From positions 18,297,501 through 18,361,500 of the forward strand of contig NC_135245.1 of the NCBI RefSeq assembly GCF_947623445.1: a stretch of 64,000 nucleotides of DNA, given 5' to 3'. How positions within the stretch are numbered: position 1 is the stretch's first letter; the number at the start of each line of letters is the position of its first letter. The notes beneath the pieces were generated by a model. It was not told where the DNA came from. It was given only the letters and a program-made list of their open reading frames with translations, and searched no databases. Both the position numbers and the translations under genes were made by a program. The stretch comes from Clavelina lepadiformis. Its lineage: Eukaryota > Chordata > Ascidiacea > Aplousobranchia > Clavelinidae. Of this stretch, positions 1 through 11,802 are shown one piece after another.

Positions 1-1641
1 CAATATGGGTGAGTTATATTTTTTAATTAATTTCTAAAGAATTCTCTTTTGACAGTAGCTTATGGAATTTAACAGCAGAAAGAATTTCATTGTTTTTGCT
101 TTATCAAAACAAAATTATTATAATTAATATAATTATAATGCTTTGTTTTCTAGGACCGTGTGCAAAGCAGTTTGATGCCATCAAAAGATTACAAAGAGAT
201 TTTCCCAACGAAGTGTTTGAATATCCGGATTGCAACTCAGATGGAACCTATGCGTACTTGCAGTGTAGTCCACAATTGAGAGTTTGTCGATGTTACAAGA
301 AAGATGGAACAATATTCTATTCACTCAATGTGCCGATTACACAGAAGGACCAACTGGCCCCAAAATGCCATGAACGTATGTCGTTATAGCTTGATATTAA
401 GTGAAATACAGAAAATGTAGTTGGTCGTTAAATGAATTCGCAATTACTTCATCCAACATTAGCTTGTTATAACCAGAGCAAACTTCACTCGCATATGATC
501 TTGGTATCGACCAATCATTAAGAACCAGTTTGATGTTATGGTTACCGGTTCCATTATTAGTAATTTGCGGTAGTTCCTCATTCGTGAATTTGGCTCTCAC
601 TTTGTGTTTTAGCAGATATTTACTGATTTATAAATGAAGTTTATTCAAACTGATAAGTAAGTGAATAAGTAACTGTAGAAAATCGGTTCAAATTTGAACA
701 TATAAAATAAAATAAAAAATATATTTGGTGTTGTACAAAAGTATACGGTATGAATTTCGAAAATACAAACAAATTCTTTTCTTTGCAGACACCGGATCTT
801 GTTGGGAAGCCAGACAGAAGGCAGCTAGTGACCAACGAGAAATCTTTGGCTTTGACTGCGACGAAACAGACGGAACTTATAAACCACGCCAATGTGATCA
901 TCGTCATCAAGATATGTCTTGCTATTGCGTCACCAAAGACGGGAAAGAAATCGCTGAAACTCGACGAACTGGATTTGGAGTGAAGCCGCCTGTTTGCCCA
1001 CGTAAGTGCACGTTTCGGTTGCTAATTGGCAGCTTTTTCTTGCTGGATTGGGTGTAAGGAGCAACAGATGAAATAAAAAATTAATTCTTCTGTGTAACTC
1101 ATCATAACGTCACGGCGCAACGCAAAGTCATATCGTCAGCACGCAACGCAACGTCATATCGTCAGCACGCAACGCAACGTCATATCGTCAGCACGCAACA
1201 TTTACTTCCATATTAAGCACTCTTAGTTAACAGTCACAGTCACCAATCACTATCAGTTAAGCAACGTTTAAAGATGAAATGCAAAAAGTATTTCTGAATA
1301 ACTATTCTAATTTATATTGAAATCATAACGTATTAAAAATCACTGCTAGTGTTCAGTGGCGAATAAAACAACAATATAATTTCATAATCATTTTATATTA
1401 GTTCTTTCCTATAGCAAAGATGAATACCGGCCAAGAATTCCCGGGACATCCAGAATTCCCAAGATTTCCTGAATTCCCAGGATTTCCTGAATTCCCAGAA
1501 TTTCCAGGAAATCCGGAATTTCCAGGATTTCCTGAATTTCCAGTACCTCCGGATGTTCCACGTTTTCCGGATTTGCCAGAATTTCCGGATTTGCCAAGAT
1601 TTCCTAGGGGTCCGGAAGAACTTCCAGGCAGGTTTCCCTGA
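1..1641 (+). CDS. Thyroglobulin type-1 repeat protein with Pro-Glu-Phe tail, 3' part of gene
   Basis: The exons read are 1-8 (tail of an upstream exon, donor gtgagt), 154-375, 789-1001 and 1415-1641 (stop TGA). The two complete internal exons are phase 1-1. Each encodes one Tg1 domain with the family's cysteine order. The first has QC then CRC in place of the usual CWC; the second has QC then CYCVTKDG. Tg1 domains often bind or inhibit cysteine proteases and occur in secreted matrix proteins; which applies here is unknown. The last exon opens at a clear acceptor (cctatag), and joining it to c1001 keeps the frame. It encodes about 70 residues of repeating P-E-F-P-G/R-F units, a low-complexity tail I do not recognise from any Tg1 family. 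The start lies left of the window. The splice joins are read by eye, but phases agree throughout. Confidence 0.8.
1115..1192. repeat. 26-bp tandem repeat, three units
   Basis: Three head-to-tail 26-bp units (acgcaacgcaacgtcatatc followed by gtcagc) lie in the last intron of the Tg1 gene. Units two and three are identical; the first differs at two bases. A partial fourth unit follows to about 1199. No function is evident. Confidence 0.9.
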
Positions 1642-3539: not shown

Positions 3540-3675
3540 AGGTGCAAAGATAGAACACCTCTAAAAGATTGCAGAAAGATTTTACAGACGAAATGTTTGA
3601 TTATAAGGGATTATATGTTTGATTATATGAGACCGCAACCCATACGGAACCTATGCTTACTTGCAGCACAAGAAA
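3540..3675 (+). pseudogene. Decayed copy of the first Tg1 exon
   Basis: The stretch matches the Tg1 exon at 154-375 over two blocks. One covers the region of aaagattgcagaaagatttt and gaaatgtttga; the other is cggaacctatgcttacttgcag, equivalent to ggaacctatgcgtacttgcag at about 242-262. Between them is a short duplicated segment, and the frame is lost. It is a broken exon fragment, probably left by a partial tandem duplication of the Tg1 gene. No matching donor or second domain follows. Confidence 0.7.
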
Positions 3676-4324
3676 GGGATAGTTGTCTCTAGTAGCAGCA
3701 TAACGGTTGGTCTAGCTGCATAAAAATACAAACAGTAAAGACATAATGCCGGATTTTTCAACAAAGCTTTTGTTTAAGATATATAATTAGGCTATGTATA
3801 TTATACAGCAAAATATTAATATCACGATTTTGAGAAACGAGTTATAGCCTATAATCACGAGTTAGTTTTGAGCTATTGCCACCATGCTGATGGTAAGTGC
3901 AAAAAAAGGGGCGGATTTCCTGCTGCTACTGCTACCTGTGCTGATACCTGTTGCGGCATGCGTTAGAAATAGACGGTTGAGGTAAAAGAGCGCAAAAATG
4001 AAAAAACGCAATATAGCAGCATTGTGTTCGACATACTGTCAGCTGATGGTTAAACAATTGTTTTTATCATGTTTGTTTTCACATTTCGATAATATCATTT
4101 TACTTAGTTTTAACAAGATTTAAATGCTTGAAAGCAGAGCAGTTGTTTAAGATATGTTTGTCGCGAACTGAGAACGACAATCAGCAACATTATAAAAAAG
4201 TACAGATAGTGTAAGCTCGCATACATTTTAAATGGCATAAAGAGACATTTGAAAGAAGATTGAAGTTAACCGATATTAATGAGTGATCCTCTTCTCATGA
4301 TTCAACTTGAAGCGAAGTATAATT

Positions 4325-4452: not shown

Positions 4453-5740
4453 ATGAATTTCCTTACTATTTTTTCTCTGCTTTTTCTGGTTACTACAGTA
4501 AAAAGCCAACAAAATCAAGTTTGTCTGACAATGTCCATGCAAGTGGAGGGTCAATCACATGCATTGGGTCAAGGCCCGCCTGGACGTCGGGGCCCACTCG
4601 GGCCTCCTGGACCGAAGGGTGACTCCGGATTTCCTGGACAATGTGTTTGTGATCCGAGTGAGATTAATAAACTCCAAGAAGAGATGCGAAACATCCGGGG
4701 TAAGATTTTGCATCTTCTAGAATATTTTTACTTTTGTTCAATAACATTTAAAGTTTTTCTTGGTTTGTTTACGTCTATTTCTGCTGCATTTTAATATGTT
4801 GTACAACTTATAGTAACTTGAGCATTTGTTTGGTATAGATTCTATAAATGTGTTGATGTCCCGCTCACACACCCATACCGATAAAGGTAAGTCTGATAAA
4901 GCAGCTCCCTTCTGTTATTATGACAGAACCGACTTTCACTTTCAAGACACAAATAACGTTTCTTGGGCAGTTGCATACTGTTTGGCTGGTCTGAAAAGTG
5001 GAAGAGTTCCTAATGGTGCAATAACATCTGAAGGATTTGCTCACGGTGGAATGGAACCATATCGTGGGAGACTGGATAATACACAAAGAAGCGATCAGCA
5101 TGGAGCTTGGGCTGCAGCACATCGTAAGTGCAGAAAATCAGTTTGGATATAAAAGGTTTTACGTTCATGAAAGCGTATATTGTGATATCCCTGACATGTT
5201 GCCCTGATATCTTGAAATGTTGCAGCCCATAAGAGAAGTTATGCAGTGCGAGTGCTTTTAAAATTTGTTTTTGTTTGTTATTTTTCAGCTTTGAAAGTTG
5301 GTGATTGGACTCAAGTCGATTTTAAAACTCCAACTTTCATCACTGGAATAGTGACACAAGGAAGACCCCAAGCGGGCCCCCAGTGGGTAACAAGTTACAA
5401 GATCTCGTACGGCAATTCCACGAAACAAATGCGAGTAATACAAGAAAACGGAAGCGACCTGGTAAGTTGCCATAACAAAAAAATAATTTCGTGGATATGG
5501 CAAAGAGTAAACTTGCTTTTATGCTACTGTTGAAGCACGAAAACTGTTTATCACAAAAATAAACTATCTTCTGGGTTTATTGCCGTATATATGTTTTTTC
5601 AGATATTTCAAGGCAATCGAGACAGGGATACAAAAGTTGTCAACATGTTTCCTCATCCATTAAGTGCAAGGTACTTCAGACTTCTTGCACAAACTTGGAA
5701 CACACATATAACCATCCGTTTGGATTATCTCACATGCTGA
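4453..5740 (+). CDS. Secreted collagen-discoidin lectin-like protein 1
   Basis: The exons are 4453-4699, 4839-4886, 4971-5123, 5289-5461 and 5603-5740, with phases 1,1,1,0, giving 252 residues. Residues 1-18 form a signal peptide. A short Gly-X-Y stalk (GPPGRRGPLGPPGPKGD) follows at about 41-60, then CxC and a charged helical stretch (SEINKLQEEMRNIR) that could trimerise the chain. The head, from CLAGLKSG to the terminal LDYLTC, matches the F5/8C (discoidin) fold, with WTQVDF, TGIVTQGR, WVTSYKISY, FQGN and ARYFRL in order. Family knowledge predicts extracellular binding to sugars or phospholipids. Intron 2 (4887-4970) is 84 bp with no stop in frame, so a form with 28 extra residues is possible. 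An AATAAA lies at 5930-5935. The ligand is unknown; an immune lectin role is inference from its collectin-like plan. Confidence 0.85.
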
Positions 5741-5969
5741 ATCGTTTAATATCCATGAAATCGATAGCAATTGATAAAATCCATATCAATTGAGTTTTGT
5801 ATTTTAAAATAGCTTGAACTCATTTTCACGTATCTCTATTGTACAGTTTAAAATTCTGGTTTTAGCTGCATTGCAAATGCAAAACATCTGCCATTTTGTT
5901 TGTGATAAACAGTAAGATCAAATCAGTCAAATAAAAACTTTGAAAATAACACCGAAAAAAATTGCCTAT

Positions 5970-7142
5970 GACTATGCGTTAGCTTATTCATAACAACTCA
6001 AATACGTCATTGCTCTATTTAATTCTCTTTGATTCTTATTTTGGTGTAACGGACATTCGCTCCTGGGTTTATTTTAACGACAGGATAAACAATTTGAGAC
6101 AGTAACGCTCAGTCTCAACTTTTTGTGATCCTAAGGTTAAGTAATTTTGCTTGATGTCTATGAATATACTCAGAAATAATTTTTTCTTCGGTTGAAAAGA
6201 AACTTTGAAAAACGACTTTAAAATAACTGTAAACAGCGTTGAAAAGTGATGGTAATATTATTCGAGCCTTCAGCATCACCAGACATGCTTTACTTATTAT
6301 TAAGAAATAAACCCAAGTAATGAAGGTTCACGCACACAAAGAAGTCCGGTAAAGTCTACTAAACTAAAGAGAATAAGCATGCGTCAAGTGTTTGCCTTGT
6401 TCTTACTTTTTAGCGTAGAGGTTTTCGTGGGCTCTATGCATGTGTTGGAATTTTTTAGATGACTGAAGTTCGTCGAAGCTTTTTTTATTTTTTACCAATT
6501 TACTTGCAAAAGTTTGTCTTACGAATACATCCAATTGCGGCTTCATCAAAGTAATTTGAAACGTGCAGAGTCGTCATCAGCGTATTGAAACTTTTTACTG
6601 AGGGTAAAATGTATTGCTTTTGTCAAAGTGCTTTTAGCTTACACCTCACCCACAATCGCTAGGTACCTTCCAGAACTTTTCACAAGATTTAGAACAAAAA
6701 GGAGATTTGAGACTTATCGTCGATGCGGATGCGGTTAAAAGTCGTATTTTAATGTTTTACGCAAAACTTTTATCGGTTGCATTTTCGCTTTAGAAGGATC
6801 AAGAAGGCATAAAAATGACAAGGCAATTCAAGTCAGCTAAAAATAATAACAAACGTTTCTCAAACAAATAATTTTGTTTTTTTTTGCTGCCTCCTGACAA
6901 GTAGAAATGAAAAATGGTAAAGTGCTCAATTACGATATTTCGGCATCTTCGACATGGGATGAACAACATGCCACTTGCTAAAACTTTATATTACATGTAG
7001 GGCTCGGATGCCTGAAAAGAAAAAAGAACCACAAACTAAATTGAATTGAAATTGTTTGTCTGGATTAATTATAATTAATAATTAATTTATCGATATGGAT
7101 AAAAAGATTTCTATGGATTAGTAATTAAGTTATGAATTATTT
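5970..7142. other. Intergenic, no gene seen
   Basis: AT-rich sequence between the first and second collagen-discoidin genes. No coding region, RNA gene or element border could be supported. Confidence 0.6.
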
Positions 7143-7686
7143 AAATGTATCTTGTTAACGTGATACAAATAATAACCCATTGTTGATTCAAATTGTAAGC
7201 ATTCGTTTAACTTGCAATACAAAAACTATTTAAGTTGCTTGAAGCTCTGTTTATTTTTCATTTTCTTTTGGTGGGTTGGACGGAAAGCGTTGTGTGACAA
7301 AAGTTTCCTATCTCTGTCGTAAGAGATCTCTAGAAAACCTTCGATCATTTACGGTGTTTGAATATTAAGTTGTATGATTTCTGTGAATGTTTCTGCTCGA
7401 AATACTTTCTCTTGCCCCAAGGCATCATGTGCATTTGCCACGTTGTTAAAACTTTGGAAAACCGGTTTCGCAAGCCTTAGCCAACTATGATGGTTAGTCT
7501 ACATTACCAAAGCATTATTACTTCTTTGCTGAGTTGGTGAAAAGGAGTTATTTTCCAATTCCAAATCCAATATATAAAAAAAGTTAACGTAAGCAGGACG
7601 TTTATCAAGAGGTTGCTGATGTTCCACTTAAGTTCAAGAGATGATAGTGTGTCAGTATCGTAAGTATACAGTGGTACAGTCTAAGC

Positions 7687-8006
7687 CAGTGATTCCCAAA
7701 CTGTGTGCCGCGGCACACTAATGTGCCGCCACAGATTCGCAGGTGTGCCGCGAATCTTTATGGGATTTTGGAAAAGAGTTGTATAAATATTTAAATTAAA
7801 GCATGCAGACAAGCATAAGCGACTCAAAAGCTTTCTAACTGCTTCAATAGCTGATAAATAAGCACATGTGACGACGACATCAATTATGGCATTGCCAATA
7901 GAGTAGGGTAATTTTTTAAAGCAACTTTTCTTGTCTTGTAAGTGTGCCGCGAGGGTTTTATAATTTTTCTAGTGTGCCACAAGCTGAAAAAGTTTGGGAA
8001 TCACTG
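7687..8006. mobile_element. Non-autonomous hAT transposon (MITE-like)
   Basis: The 320-bp element has perfect 16-bp inverted ends, CAGTGATTCCCAAACT, and is flanked by an 8-bp target duplication, gtctaagc (7679-7686 and 8007-8014). The homologous flank near 10426-10433 carries a single gtctaagc and no element, which is an empty site. Self-complementary gtgtgccgcggcacac lies near the left end. It has no coding capacity. The 8-bp duplication and CAGTG ends fit the hAT superfamily. Insertion came after the flank was duplicated. Confidence 0.93.
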
Positions 8007-8018
8007 GTCTAAGCACTT

Positions 8019-8033
8019 TCATGTTTATTTCAG
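8019..8033 (+). promoter_or_regulatory. 3' splice acceptor 37 bp before a start codon
   Basis: The sequence catgtttatttcag ends at 8033; the ATG begins at 8071. The same site is kept upstream of gene 3 (ends 10451). It is a candidate trans-splice acceptor or 5' UTR intron end. Confidence 0.55.
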
Positions 8034-8070
8034 CAATAATAGTAGTTATTGTTTACCAAAAAGCACCAAA

Positions 8071-9344
8071 ATGATATATTTGACAACAAGGCTTTGCCTG
8101 ATTTTTTCATATTTTGGATTTTGTTTATCCAATGAAGTTTGTCTCACATTGCCTGATGCCCAGCAAGGACAAAATCCGACCTCACTGAAACAAGGACCCC
8201 CTGGGCGTCGTGGCCCACTCGGGCCTCCTGGACCCAAGGGTGAATTTGGACCTCCTGGGCAATGTGCTTGTGATCCGAGTGAGATTGATCAACTCCGAGA
8301 AGAGATGCGAAGAATCCGGGGTAAGATTCCTTTACAGTGCATGGCAGGACACACAAACAAGAACGCATGGTGCTTATATACACTACTTCTGTATTCATGT
8401 TTATTAATCAAAAAGTTTTGTCAACAGGATCAGTAAATATGTTGATGTCTAGATCTCACACTCATGCGGATAAAGGTATTGTTTGCAACATATTTTTTTT
8501 TACCAAAACAGAGAATGTTCTTCACCTACAATTACTTCCACTAACAGCAGACTGCAAATTTTTAACGCAGTTTCTCACTGTTTGGCTGGAATGAAAAGTA
8601 GAAGAATAAATGATGCAGATATAACTGCGGAAGGATTTGCTCACGGTGGACTGGAACCGCACCGCGGAAGATTGGATAATACAATCGGCGATGGCCAGTA
8701 CGGAGCTTGGGCGGCAGCAGGCCCTCGTAAGAATACGTAGCCTAAATAAAACATAAAATCAATGTGTAAATATATTTGTCACAATGTTAACATTTTATAC
8801 GTCGATTTGTGACATTGAGTTCAGTTATATTTCCAAAAGAACAATTAGTTCCAATTCCAAGACATTGCAATATAAATTTAAACTATCAACATACTTTCCA
8901 TTTCAGTAACAGTTGGTGATTGGATTCAAGTAGATTTTAAAAAACCCACTTTCGTTACCGGAATTGTAACACAAGGAAGGCCACAAAACAGTAATCAATG
9001 GGTGACAAGCTACAAGATCTCATACGGCAATTCTACAAACCAAATGCAAGTGATACGGGAACGTGGAAGCGACTTGGTAAAATTGGTCAACTAGTTCATC
9101 CAGGATTGTTTTCTTTTTTTATTTCTATAAAACGTAACTGATATAGACTACAGCACGTTAAGTGCGTAAACAAGGTTACATGTCTACGTTGTTTTATTCG
9201 CTGCAGATATTTCAAGGCAATCGTGACATGGATACAAAAGTCATCAATATATTTCCTCGCGCTGTGGTTGCAAGATACTTCAGGCTTCTTGCACAAACCT
9301 GGCATAGTTACATTTCAATCCGCCTGGATTACGTGACCTGCTAA
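8071..9344 (+). CDS. Secreted collagen-discoidin lectin-like protein 2
   Basis: The exons are 8071-8320, 8428-8475, 8571-8726, 8907-9076 and 9207-9344, with the same phases as gene 1, giving 253 residues. The order is signal peptide (about residues 1-21), Gly-X-Y stalk (about 41-62), CAC, helical SEIDQLREEMRRIR, a SRSHTHAD linker, then an F5/8C head from CLAGMKSR to LDYVTC with WIQVDF, TGIVTQGR, FQGN and ARYFRL. The ATG at 8071 is chosen because the signal peptide and upstream sequence match gene 3. Exon 1 and the promoter are very close to gene 3 (10489), whereas the head is much closer to gene 1 (4453), so the gene is a mosaic. A hAT element sits in its 5' flank. The role is probably an extracellular lectin-like binder; the ligand is unknown. 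Confidence 0.85.
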
Positions 9345-9904
9345 ATAAATATGAAAGTTGAATGATTAATGTAAATAGCTTTGCACCTGAATGAGTTTGA
9401 ATAAGAATGACTTTCTCTGCAAACATCTCATTTTAAGCATGATCAAAGATAAATGTCTTCATTTTATCATCATGTATATATGTAACAGCCCACTGAATTA
9501 AAAACAAGCTTGCTTACTTTTCTGCGCCATTATTTTATACTTTATATTAAGTAACTGCTACAGATTACTCTAAGTTGCTTTGTGGAAAATCCTCGAAAAA
9601 CCATTGCATAAAATGAAACAGTGCATTCATTTAGAGTTTAGACCATGAATGTTATCTTTGATCGTAATAAGACATTTATGTTATTTCGTTGATCGGTGAC
9701 CTAAATGAAACTATCACAATTTCTCGTCCGTTGCCTTATGTTAACATGAGTTTTAATTCCTGGTCTTTTCCATGGAGAATATCACTTTATAAAATATGCG
9801 TAATGTAATATAATATAAAAGTTTAATAAACAAATGTACTTGTAACATCTTCGTTATTGCCCAATCTATCCTGTCGATATAGTAGCAAAAATGTTCTCTA
9901 CTTT

Positions 9905-10488
9905 AAATGTATTTTGGTACCGTGATACAAATAATAACCCATTGTTAATTCAAATTGTAAGCATTCGTTTAACTCGCTATACAAAAACTGTATAAGTTGC
10001 TTGAAGCTCTGTTCATTTTTTCATTTTGTTTTCGTGGGTTGTGGACGGAAAGCGTTGTGTGACAAAAGTTTCCTATCTCTGTCAAAAAAGAACCCTAGAA
10101 AACCTTCGATCATTTACGTTGTTTGAATATTAAGTTGTATGATTTCAGTGAATGTTTCTGCTCGAAATACTTTCTTTTTCCCCAAGGCATCATGTGCATT
10201 TGCCACGTTGTTAAAACTTTGGAAAACCGGTTTCGCAAGCCTTAGCTAATTATGATGGTTAGCCTACATTACCAAAGCATTATTACGTCTTTGCTGAGTT
10301 TGTGAAAAGGAGCTAGAAAAGGAGAATTGTAAAAGTAAGCAGGACGTTTACCAAGAGGTTGCAGATGTTCCACTTAAGTTCAAGAGATGATAGTGTGTCA
10401 GTATCGTAAGTATACAGTAGTACAGTCTAAGCATTTTCATGTTTGTTTCAGCATTTATAGTAGTTATTGTTGACCAAAAAGTACCAAA
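9905..10488 (+). repeat. Duplicated 5' flank, copy upstream of collagen-discoidin gene 3
   Basis: Partner of 7143-8070. It lacks the hAT insertion and so preserves the empty target site near 10426-10433. It ends at the start codon of gene 3 and includes the acceptor gtttgtttcag (ends 10451). Confidence 0.85.
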
Positions 10489-11802
10489 ATGATATATTTG
10501 ACAACAAGACTTTGTCTAATATTTTCATATTTTGGATTTTGTTTATCCAATGAAATTTGTTTCTCATTGCCTGATGCCCATCAAGGACAAAATCCGACTT
10601 CACTGAACCAGGGACCCCCTGGACGTCGTGGCCCACTCGGGCCTCCTGGACCGAAGGGTGATTTTGGACCTCCTGGACGATGTGCTTGTGATCCGAGTGA
10701 GATTGATCAACTCCGAGAAGAGATGCGTTCCATCACAGGTATTGCTAAACCTGTTTTGTTGTTTTGTCTTCGTAAGTAAGTTGTTTTGTTTTTGTCTATT
10801 CATACAGTATATGGAGAAGGTGTGAATTTGATCGTGTAAGTGAAATTTTTATAGTTATGATGTTCTTAATGTTCGATTTCAATAACATGCTTTATTTTAC
10901 AGAAGCATTAAATTTGGTGAAATCCATCGACAGAGGTATTTGTGAATTTAACTATATTTTAGTCAATTATCAGTTTATGAATACCTGGAAATAATTTGTT
11001 TTAAACGAGGAGATACTGAATAACGGTTTAAGGTTAATAAGGTTAATAAGGTTTTGATGGTTTACTTGTTACTATAGAAAAACTATGTTCGGTTGGGGTT
11101 AAAGATGGGAGAGTGGCGGATGAAGACATAACAGCATCTGATTTTGCTCATACTGGAACGGAGTCCTACAGAGGAAGGCTGGATAACAAACTTGGTTCTG
11201 GCACAGGGGCTTGGTCATCAGGTTATGACCGTAAGTAAAGTGAAAAAAGTCATAAAGTGAAATTGATAGTTTGCTGTTAATAAATCATTAAAACCTGAAG
11301 TCAGGATTTTTTCTGTTTGTTTTAAAAAAGAACAAAACCAGAACTTATGAAACAAAAAACAAAACCAGAAAAATTTTTAAAATTAATGACTTTCGTGTGT
11401 GACTATATTTTTTACAAGGGAGACCTGGTGTTCAGTGGATTCAAGTTGATTTGAAACATATTACTTTCGTTACCGGAATTATTACACAAGGAAGGCCAAG
11501 CAACGCACAATGGATCACCGGTTTCAAGATAGCTTATGGGAACGACACGAGTCATATGCAAGTTATTCAAAGAGACGACCAAGATATTGTGAGTGAAATT
11601 GTTTAAGGTTCTTTCACTGTTTCAACTGTTTTGACGGCACATGTAATGTTGTCATCTTTTACAGACCTTTCAAGGTAACAGCGACTCTGACACGAAGGTT
11701 ACAACCATGTTTCCAGCACCAATCGTTGCGAGATACGTCAGACTAATCTCGGAAAGTTATTATTCACATCCTTCAGTTCGATTGGAGTACATAACATGTT
11801 AA
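10489..11802 (+). CDS. Secreted collagen-discoidin lectin-like protein 3
   Basis: The exons are 10489-10738, 10903-10935, 11078-11230, 11419-11588 and 11665-11802, giving 247 residues. The signal peptide and stalk are nearly those of gene 2, with CAC and SEIDQLREEMRSI following. The linker exon is shorter (33 against 48 bp) and lacks the SRSHTH motif. The F5/8C head runs from CSVGVKDGR to LEYITC with WIQVDL, TGIITQGR, FQGN and ARYVRL, but it is much more diverged from the other two heads than its exon 1 is. Its exon phases match those of genes 1 and 2. It is probably secreted and oligomeric through the collagen stalk; the ligand is unknown. Confidence 0.85.

What the first reader, a model, noticed from the sequence alone, without database searches (positions are those of the whole stretch)
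4453..11802. Tandem collagen-discoidin genes: a ficolin-like plan with an F5/8C head
Each gene encodes a signal peptide, six to eight Gly-X-Y triplets beginning GPPGRRGPLGPPGPKG, a CxC, a short charged helix, a linker and a single F5/8C head. Collectins and ficolins use the same stalk logic with C-type lectin or fibrinogen heads. I know of no well-described family that pairs a minimal collagen stalk with one discoidin head. Three intact copies with identical exon phases suggest a diversifying recognition family. The immune role is inference.
Basis: partly seen in the sequence, partly recalled or inferred. Interest (0 to 1): 0.7.

Follow-up and report, generated by a model that had tools for sequence, protein, structure and literature searches.

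The report
Sea-squirt collagen-stalk discoidin gene family
This stretch of a sea-squirt chromosome holds three genes from a much larger family of secreted proteins that join a very short collagen stalk to a variable sticky head, probably to recognise microbes or other surfaces; the same stalk is also attached to other heads elsewhere in the genome.

Summary
The window matches Clavelina lepadiformis chromosome 6. Five loci tested carry a homologous stalk before C-type-lectin-like exons, and one has EGF modules before F5/8C. Stalk and head exchange separately: genes 2 and 3 are 90-93% identical up to 12 nt before the end of exon 1, then at background in introns, and their stalk and head trees conflict. 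In eight stop-free close paralogues omega is 1.01 in predicted binding loops, 0.28 elsewhere in the head. Best explanation: a lineage-expanded family of soluble multivalent recognition proteins built like ficolins and collectins; trimer, ligand and immune role are inferred. Searches of open-access papers showed no described family of this plan; tunicate proteomes and RNA-seq were out of reach.

The parts
4453..5740 (+). gene g1: exons 4453-4699, 4839-4886, 4971-5123, 5289-5461, 5603-5740; 252 aa
   Evidence: splice borders, phases 1,1,1,0 and open frame; Pfam F5_F8_type_C 5.8e-23
4573..4644 (+). g1 eight Gly-X-Y triplets; the last codon is the first Cys of the CxC
8071..9344 (+). gene g2: exons 8071-8320, 8428-8475, 8571-8726, 8907-9076, 9207-9344; 253 aa
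   Evidence: Pfam 4.9e-23
8194..8265 (+). g2 eight Gly-X-Y triplets
10489..11802 (+). gene g3: exons 10489-10738, 10903-10935, 11078-11230, 11419-11588, 11665-11802; 247 aa
   Evidence: Pfam 3.4e-24
10612..10683 (+). g3 eight Gly-X-Y triplets
7140..8308 (+). 5' cassette of g2 (upstream DNA, leader and stalk exon up to 12 nt before its end), interrupted by a dispersed repeat at about 7677-8011; shared with g3
   Evidence: identity g2/g3 0.90-0.93 here, 0.41-0.65 from the last 12 nt of exon 1 onward; genome search with this stretch
9902..10726 (+). 5' cassette of g3, the counterpart of 7140-8308
   Evidence: repeat families D2, D3, D8, D9

Best explanation
These are three members of a large, still duplicating family of secreted, multivalent recognition proteins in the sea squirt Clavelina lepadiformis. 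Shown: leader, Cys, eight Gly-X-Y triplets, CxC, a heptad-patterned helix that runs across intron 1, and one F5/8C head. Also shown: the stalk exon ends in a phase-1 intron and a homologous stalk exon precedes other heads elsewhere in the genome, and a 5' region (upstream DNA plus leader plus stalk) is recently shared between copies whose heads are old. Inferred: three chains zip through the helix and the short collagen rod and are locked by the N-terminal and CxC cysteines. Heads are thereby presented in threes (or multiples), so weak binding through the F5/8C loops becomes avid. The protein acts in body fluid or mucus as an agglutinin, opsonin or complement-type recogniser. New specificities arise by tandem duplication, loop divergence and re-pairing of stalk cassettes with heads.
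For: Gene models and domains; head aligned, up to its last cysteine, to factor V/VIII C domains, lactadherin and neuropilin. Family size: 86 stalk-like places, 67 with an F5/8C exon within 9 kb and 52 within 2 kb; 22 of 30 loci modelled outside the window gave a stop-free model reaching the conserved last exon. Stalk homology outside the collagen: 0 of 2000 shuffles reach the score for 6 of 6 loci tried with other architectures, against 216, 909 and 568 of 2000 for three other collagen genes of the genome. Heptad pattern. 5' cassette sharing: g2/g3 and, on chromosome 2, L038/L052: upstream 0.95, exon 1 0.99, intron region 0.62, head exons 0.75-0.79. Head tree rejects g2+g3 (p-AU 0.00016); stalk tree joins them (96/95). 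Loop omega 1.01 against 0.28 for the rest of the head and 0.32 for the stalk in eight stop-free close paralogues, 27 of 28 pairs used; loop-focused variability reached by 1 of 145 circular shifts.
Against: No expression, protein, ligand or oligomer data were available. Eight triplets are few for a stable collagen helix on their own (recalled). Window heads show omega of 0.16 to 0.40, and no site model was run; loops vary in most F5/8C families anyway (recalled). Of six close pairs printed singly, loop dN was higher in two and lower in four, though over all pairs used it was higher in 35 of 39 and, stop-free, 25 of 27. Pairs are not independent. Pfam calls only one of the three fully searched C-type-lectin-like heads. 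The stalk tree cannot tell one from several origins of those genes (p-AU 0.139). The genome search for the g2/g3 cassette scored only 40 of 246 candidates, nearly all of them a dispersed repeat, so other copies are not excluded. Nothing here ties the genes to haemocytes, gut or infection.
Confidence: 0.55

Rival explanations
1. Matrix or tunic adhesion proteins: small matricellular proteins in the manner of CTHRC1, retinoschisin or EGF-discoidin proteins that glue cells or tunic, with many copies serving different tissues or dosage.
For: F5/8C domains are common in adhesion proteins (recalled); the one member read of the chromosome 6 4.0-4.3 Mb cluster carries EGF modules before F5/8C. CTHRC1 is a secreted trimer with a short (12-repeat) collagen stretch (PMC7058181, passages).
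Against: Copy number in the dozens with loop-focused change, and stalk sharing with C-type-lectin-like exons, are more typical of recognition than of structural proteins (inference).
Confidence: 0.22
2. Self/non-self or gamete recognition proteins, for self-sterility or colony contact, whose polymorphism matters more than microbial binding.
For: Clavelina is a budding genus (PMC7344649, passages); clusters with sequence exchange suit polymorphism.
Against: The models end at the head with no membrane segment, no population data were at hand, and members lie on many chromosomes rather than at one locus; no link to known tunicate allorecognition genes was tested.
Confidence: 0.13
3. A largely neutral or decaying expansion: tandem copies made by unequal crossing-over, many silent, with no shared function.
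For: Four of 30 modelled loci hold an in-frame stop, another copy at chr6 18292419 has one in the stalk, the L042 stalk is broken, and chromosome 7 has four near-identical copies at about 10.5 kb spacing.
Against: 22 of 30 stop-free models, and omega of 0.16-0.40 in the window heads.
Confidence: 0.07

Closest known systems
Ficolins (short collagen stalk plus fibrinogen head)
   Same: Leader, N-terminal Cys, short collagen, Cys, coiled-coil-like helix, one C-terminal binding head. A gene of this plan is in the same genome (L065).
   Different: Head is F5/8C, not fibrinogen. Flanks of the L065 stalk are not recognisably homologous to this stalk (216 of 2000 shuffles).
Collectins / MBL (collagen plus C-type lectin head)
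   Same: Same plan; six stalk exons in this genome are followed by C-type-lectin-like exons, five of them tested for stalk homology.
   Different: Window genes have F5/8C heads. Of three C-type-like heads searched in full, L039 passed Pfam's Lectin_C cut-off narrowly; L040 and L043 gave no Lectin_C match up to E 1 and are called C-type-like from their likeness to L039.
CTHRC1 family
   Same: Secreted, short collagen run and one globular head (PMC7058181, passages).
   Different: Head is C1q-like, not F5/8C.
Short-collagen C1q-like proteins (for example of rotifers)
   Same: A collagen run of about 30 aa directly before one C-terminal head (PMC8878817, passages).
   Different: C1q head; two to six genes per rotifer species in that paper.
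Discoidin / F5/8C proteins (lactadherin, factor V/VIII C domains, neuropilin, retinoschisin)
   Same: Head domain, with matches reaching its last cysteine.
   Different: No collagen stalk is known to me in these (recalled); the window genes have one head per chain.

Membership tests
F5/8 type C (discoidin) domain proteins | Pfam PF00754 match over most of the domain | tested here: met
   81.8, 82.1 and 85.8 bits against a cut-off of 28.2; profile positions 12-124, 3-124 and 2-118 of 127
Ficolin | C-terminal fibrinogen domain | tested here: not met
   Pfam finds F5/8C and no fibrinogen domain up to E 1
Ficolin | N-terminal Cys plus short collagen stalk | tested here: met
   Cys 24, eight triplets, CxC
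Collectin | C-type lectin domain after the collagen and neck | tested here: not met
   not met for g1-g3; C-type-lectin-like exons follow the same stalk at L029 and L039-L043, with one Pfam match over the cut-off (L039)
CTHRC1 | C1q-like C-terminal domain | tested here: not met
   F5/8C head instead
Collagen-stalk recognition proteins (defence collagens, as a way of working) | Trimer formed through the collagen/helix stalk | not testable with these tools
   heptad pattern and cysteines fit; the structure tool predicts single chains, and its rule on letter-for-letter translation made spliced proteins doubtful to hand in, so none was sent
Collagen-stalk recognition proteins (defence collagens, as a way of working) | Binds microbial or damaged-self ligands | not testable with these tools
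   no binding or expression data held
F-type lectins (fucose-binding) | fucose-binding sequence motif | not tested
   not run

The most novel reading that the evidence does not exclude
A modular recognition system in an invertebrate chordate: one 5' cassette type (upstream DNA, leader and collagen stalk exon ending in phase 1) is kept alike by conversion or unequal exchange and is re-paired with diversifying heads of at least two kinds (F5/8C and C-type-lectin-like), giving a large repertoire of trimeric lectins with shared assembly and possibly shared effector coupling. Because the stalks are alike, chains with different heads could mix in one trimer, multiplying specificities.
Probability: 0.3. 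Interest if true: 0.78.

Novelty: new variant of a known kind. Interest (0 to 1): 0.6.

Why it matters
Ficolins, collectins and C1q are the sensors at the start of vertebrate complement. Tunicates are the nearest living relatives of vertebrates. A genome in which one collagen stalk precedes both C-type-lectin-like and discoidin heads, with dozens of copies and visible stalk/head exchange, would show how such sensors are assembled and diversified, and would give a test bed for whether stalk sharing permits mixed trimers.

Tried and rejected
Considered and dropped. (a) A three-gene local oddity: rejected by the genome searches. (b) Simple tandem duplication of g2 into g3: rejected, as the head tree excludes g2+g3 while the upstream DNA and stalk unite them. 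(c) A generally slow stalk explaining low stalk divergence: not general, since in L028/L052 and L050/L052 exon 1 is about as alike as introns 1-2 with exon 2, and less alike than exons 3 and 4. Of 300 pairs, eight fall below 1.7e-4 (which printed the 14 lowest); seven have the stalk closer, of which g3/L010 follows from g3 being a mosaic, and L008/L057 goes the other way, L057's stalk being broken. (d) Fibrinogen-headed and TSP1-like collagen genes (L065, L044, L045) as sharers of this stalk: flanks not better than shuffles. The fibrinogen gene lying inside the chromosome 2 cluster (L064) showed no collagen stalk by eye among its plus-strand frames of 45 aa or more. (e) A sushi module seen by eye in L046 was not reported by Pfam and is not claimed.

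Limits. Rows dropped before counts: six of 33 genes before the alignments (L019, L027, L036, L053, L056, L063), leaving 27 heads; two more had no usable stalk (L006, L062), leaving 25 stalks. The head tree used 21 of 27 heads (six near-copies left out); the stalk tree 19 of 25 F5/8C-headed stalks (five near-copies and the broken L057 left out) plus five C-type-like ones, without L042. The flank test compared with 13 of the 25 stalks, chosen by hand. Head places were taken by hand, not every listed row; the places of a separate multi-domain cluster on chromosome 2 at 20.6 Mb were left out. Some 5' ends are not verified, and the L036 and L049 models are irregular around exon 2. Genome searches score only the best candidates; the count of 86 mixes two queries and includes weak collagen-only hits. 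Spike borders were set by me from the alignment. Literature: of ten searches, sought the genome paper and one search returned nothing, probably because the slash in F5/8 cannot be typed; the other eight listed no paper that, from titles and abstract starts, describes this architecture, but searches listed 15 of 76 and 20 of 123 papers. I read passages only of PMC10884593, PMC12373286, PMC11312191, PMC5465252, PMC2394772, PMC6626399, PMC7058181, PMC8878817, PMC8260672 and PMC7344649; in PMC8704543 none of my terms occurred. No proteome, RNA-seq or other eukaryote genome was searched. Structure prediction was not run.
Full report
What is there. The window lies in a 209.06 Mb genome of 95 contigs, at G000:C6:18297501-18361500. 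Contig lengths returned by the tools (C4 25.07, C5 24.62, C6 20.77, C7 20.45, C8 19.51, C9 15.73 Mb) equal those in the chromosome table of Clavelina lepadiformis kaClaLepa1; C1-C3 differ by 0.01 Mb (28.78, 26.53, 25.73 against 28.79, 26.54, 25.74), and the paper gives 210.1 Mb in 102 scaffolds (PMC10884593, passages read). So the window is chromosome 6 of that sea squirt, perhaps in another release. At 4453-11802 there are three complete genes, each of five exons with GT-AG introns and phases 1,1,1,0: g1 252 aa, g2 253 aa, g3 247 aa. All three hold GPPGRRGPLGPPGPKG inside eight Gly-X-Y triplets. Pfam gives F5_F8_type_C at E 5.8e-23, 4.9e-23 and 3.4e-24, and Collagen only below its cut-off. 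The head aligns with factor V and VIII C domains, lactadherin and neuropilin up to its last cysteine. The cysteines are: one before the collagen (24), two in the CxC after it (64/66 in g1), and two at the ends of the head (102/252 in g1); g2 and g3 have two more near the N-terminus, in the leader by eye.

The helix after the collagen. In 30 of 36 models in which the register could be set, residues 0 and 3 of the heptad are hydrophobic in 0.88 and 0.86; outside the stretch used to set the register, 0.63 and 0.78 against 0.17-0.38 elsewhere. This fits a coiled coil that would hold three collagen chains together. That it does so is inferred.

A family, not a trio. A search with g1 found exon matches across the genome. 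Two searches with different stalk exons gave 86 distinct stalk-like places; 67 have an F5/8C exon within 9 kb downstream on the same strand, 52 within 2 kb, on chromosomes 1-7 and 9. The weakest of the 86 are collagen-only matches. Of 30 loci modelled outside the window with a spliced aligner written here, 22 gave a stop-free model reaching the conserved last exon, 4 hold an in-frame stop and 4 are incomplete. The second-last coding exon is 170 nt in 22 of 30 and the last 135 nt plus stop in 25 of 30. The chromosome 6 cluster continues upstream of the window with a close relative of g1 on the other strand (89% head identity), a copy with a stop in the stalk, and an orphan last exon that differs from that of g2 in 3 of 45 residues.

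Same stalk, other heads. At L029 and L039-L043 the stalk exon is followed by exons that look like a C-type lectin domain; the L042 stalk is broken. In the two clearest genes, L039 and L041, it ends in a phase-1 intron as in g1-g3. Of three such heads searched in full, L039 passes Pfam's Lectin_C cut-off (22.9 against 22.6 bits) and L040 and L043 give no Lectin_C match up to E 1; the first exon alone of L041 gave 16.1 bits; L029 was not searched. L040, L043 and L029 are called C-type-like from their alignment to L039. L046, the one member read of the chromosome 6 4.0-4.3 Mb cluster, has EGF modules between stalk and F5/8C head. Because collagen repeats look alike everywhere, I scored only the flanks of the stalk: 0 of 2000 shuffles reached the score for five of five C-type-like loci tried and for L046, whereas a ficolin-like gene (L065), a fibrinogen-headed gene (L044) and a TSP1-like collagen gene (L045) were reached by 216, 909 and 568. 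So the stalk is homologous across these architectures, but not recognisably with that ficolin-type gene. How often heads were swapped cannot be told from a 63-column tree (p-AU 0.139 for one origin).

Stalk and head travel separately. Between g2 and g3 the upstream DNA (0.92), 5' flank (0.90) and first 238 nt of exon 1 (0.93) are alike; from the last 12 nt of exon 1 onward identity is 0.41-0.65, introns 0.41-0.51, like the introns of g1/g2 (0.41-0.53). Synonymous distance is 0.15 in the stalk and 1.72 in the head. The head tree rejects g2+g3 as one clade (p-AU 0.00016) and places g2 with g1 and its upstream relative; the stalk tree joins g2+g3 with 96/95 support. A genome search with the 5' stretch of g2 scored 40 of 246 candidates and found it only at g2 and g3, besides 38 copies of a dispersed repeat that lies inside it, so other copies of the stretch are not excluded. 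So g3 is a mosaic. The pattern recurs on chromosome 2 (L038/L052: upstream 0.95, exon 1 0.99, intron region 0.62, head exons 0.75-0.79) and in part on chromosome 9 (L031/L060, high identity up to exon 3, upstream 0.56), while other pairs show no such contrast. Eight of 300 pairs pass a 1.7e-4 threshold and seven of them have the stalk closer; they are not independent.

Where heads vary. Spike loops were set by aligning g1 to factor V. Among ten close paralogues (39 of 45 pairs, dS up to 0.6) omega was 0.94 in the three spikes, 0.28 in the rest of the head and 0.27 in the stalk. Two of the ten hold an in-frame stop; with the eight others (27 of 28 pairs) the values are 1.01, 0.28 and 0.32, and spike dN is the higher in 25 of 27 pairs (35 of 39 with all ten). 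Column entropy in the eight is 0.75 against 0.37, reached by 1 of 145 circular shifts (the same count with nine genes). In a spread of 17 heads, 21 of 51 spike columns but 4 of 112 others hold gaps. Against this: window heads are constrained as wholes (0.16-0.40); pairs are not independent; and of six close pairs printed singly, spike dN was higher in g1/L010 and L048/L049 but lower in L051/L055, L006/L038, L050/L052 and L028/L052.

How it most likely works. Secreted chains trimerise through helix and collagen, lock by disulfides, and present three F5/8C heads. Loops read the target and avidity does the rest. This is ficolin logic with another head. Steps shown: architecture, family size, stalk sharing, mosaicism, loop-focused change. 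Steps inferred: trimer, ligand, immune use. Rivals are matrix adhesion, self/non-self recognition, and drift.

Known or new. Tunicates are recorded with MBLs and ficolins (PMC5465252, PMC11312191) and C1q-like transcripts (PMC5465252; passages); the term discoidin does not occur in the main text of either. Short collagen stalks with other heads exist (CTHRC1; rotifer C1q-like proteins). Eight on-topic literature searches listed no described family of collagen stalk plus one F5/8C head, but subscription journals, proteomes and other tunicate genomes were out of reach. Hence: a new variant of a known kind, with novelty to be checked in tunicate proteomes.

Noticed in passing
window 1-1020 and 1402-1641: Exons of a thyroglobulin type-1 repeat gene (Pfam 1.1e-16), followed by an ORF of Pro/Phe/Glu-rich short repeats.
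   Followed up: partly
window 3541-3680: Looks by eye like a decayed copy of a thyroglobulin exon from the gene upstream.
   Followed up: no
window 7677-8011: About 325-bp dispersed repeat, 38 other copies listed where 40 of 246 candidates were scored, at 87-94% identity, inserted in the 5' region of g2 but not g3; terminal inverted repeats by eye, MITE-like.
   Followed up: partly
G000 chromosome 7, 19.758-19.791 Mb: Four near-identical family copies at about 10.5 kb spacing, a recent tandem amplification or an assembly duplicate.
   Followed up: no
G000 chromosome 6, 18290779-18290913: Orphan last exon differing from that of g2 in 3 of 45 residues.
   Followed up: no
G000 chromosome 2, 24702713-24703390: A fibrinogen-domain exon lies inside the collagen-discoidin cluster; no collagen stalk seen by eye in the 2.75 kb read.
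   Followed up: partly
L065, chromosome 1 9851700-9853900: Ficolin-type gene (short collagen, helix, fibrinogen exons) in the same genome.
   Followed up: partly
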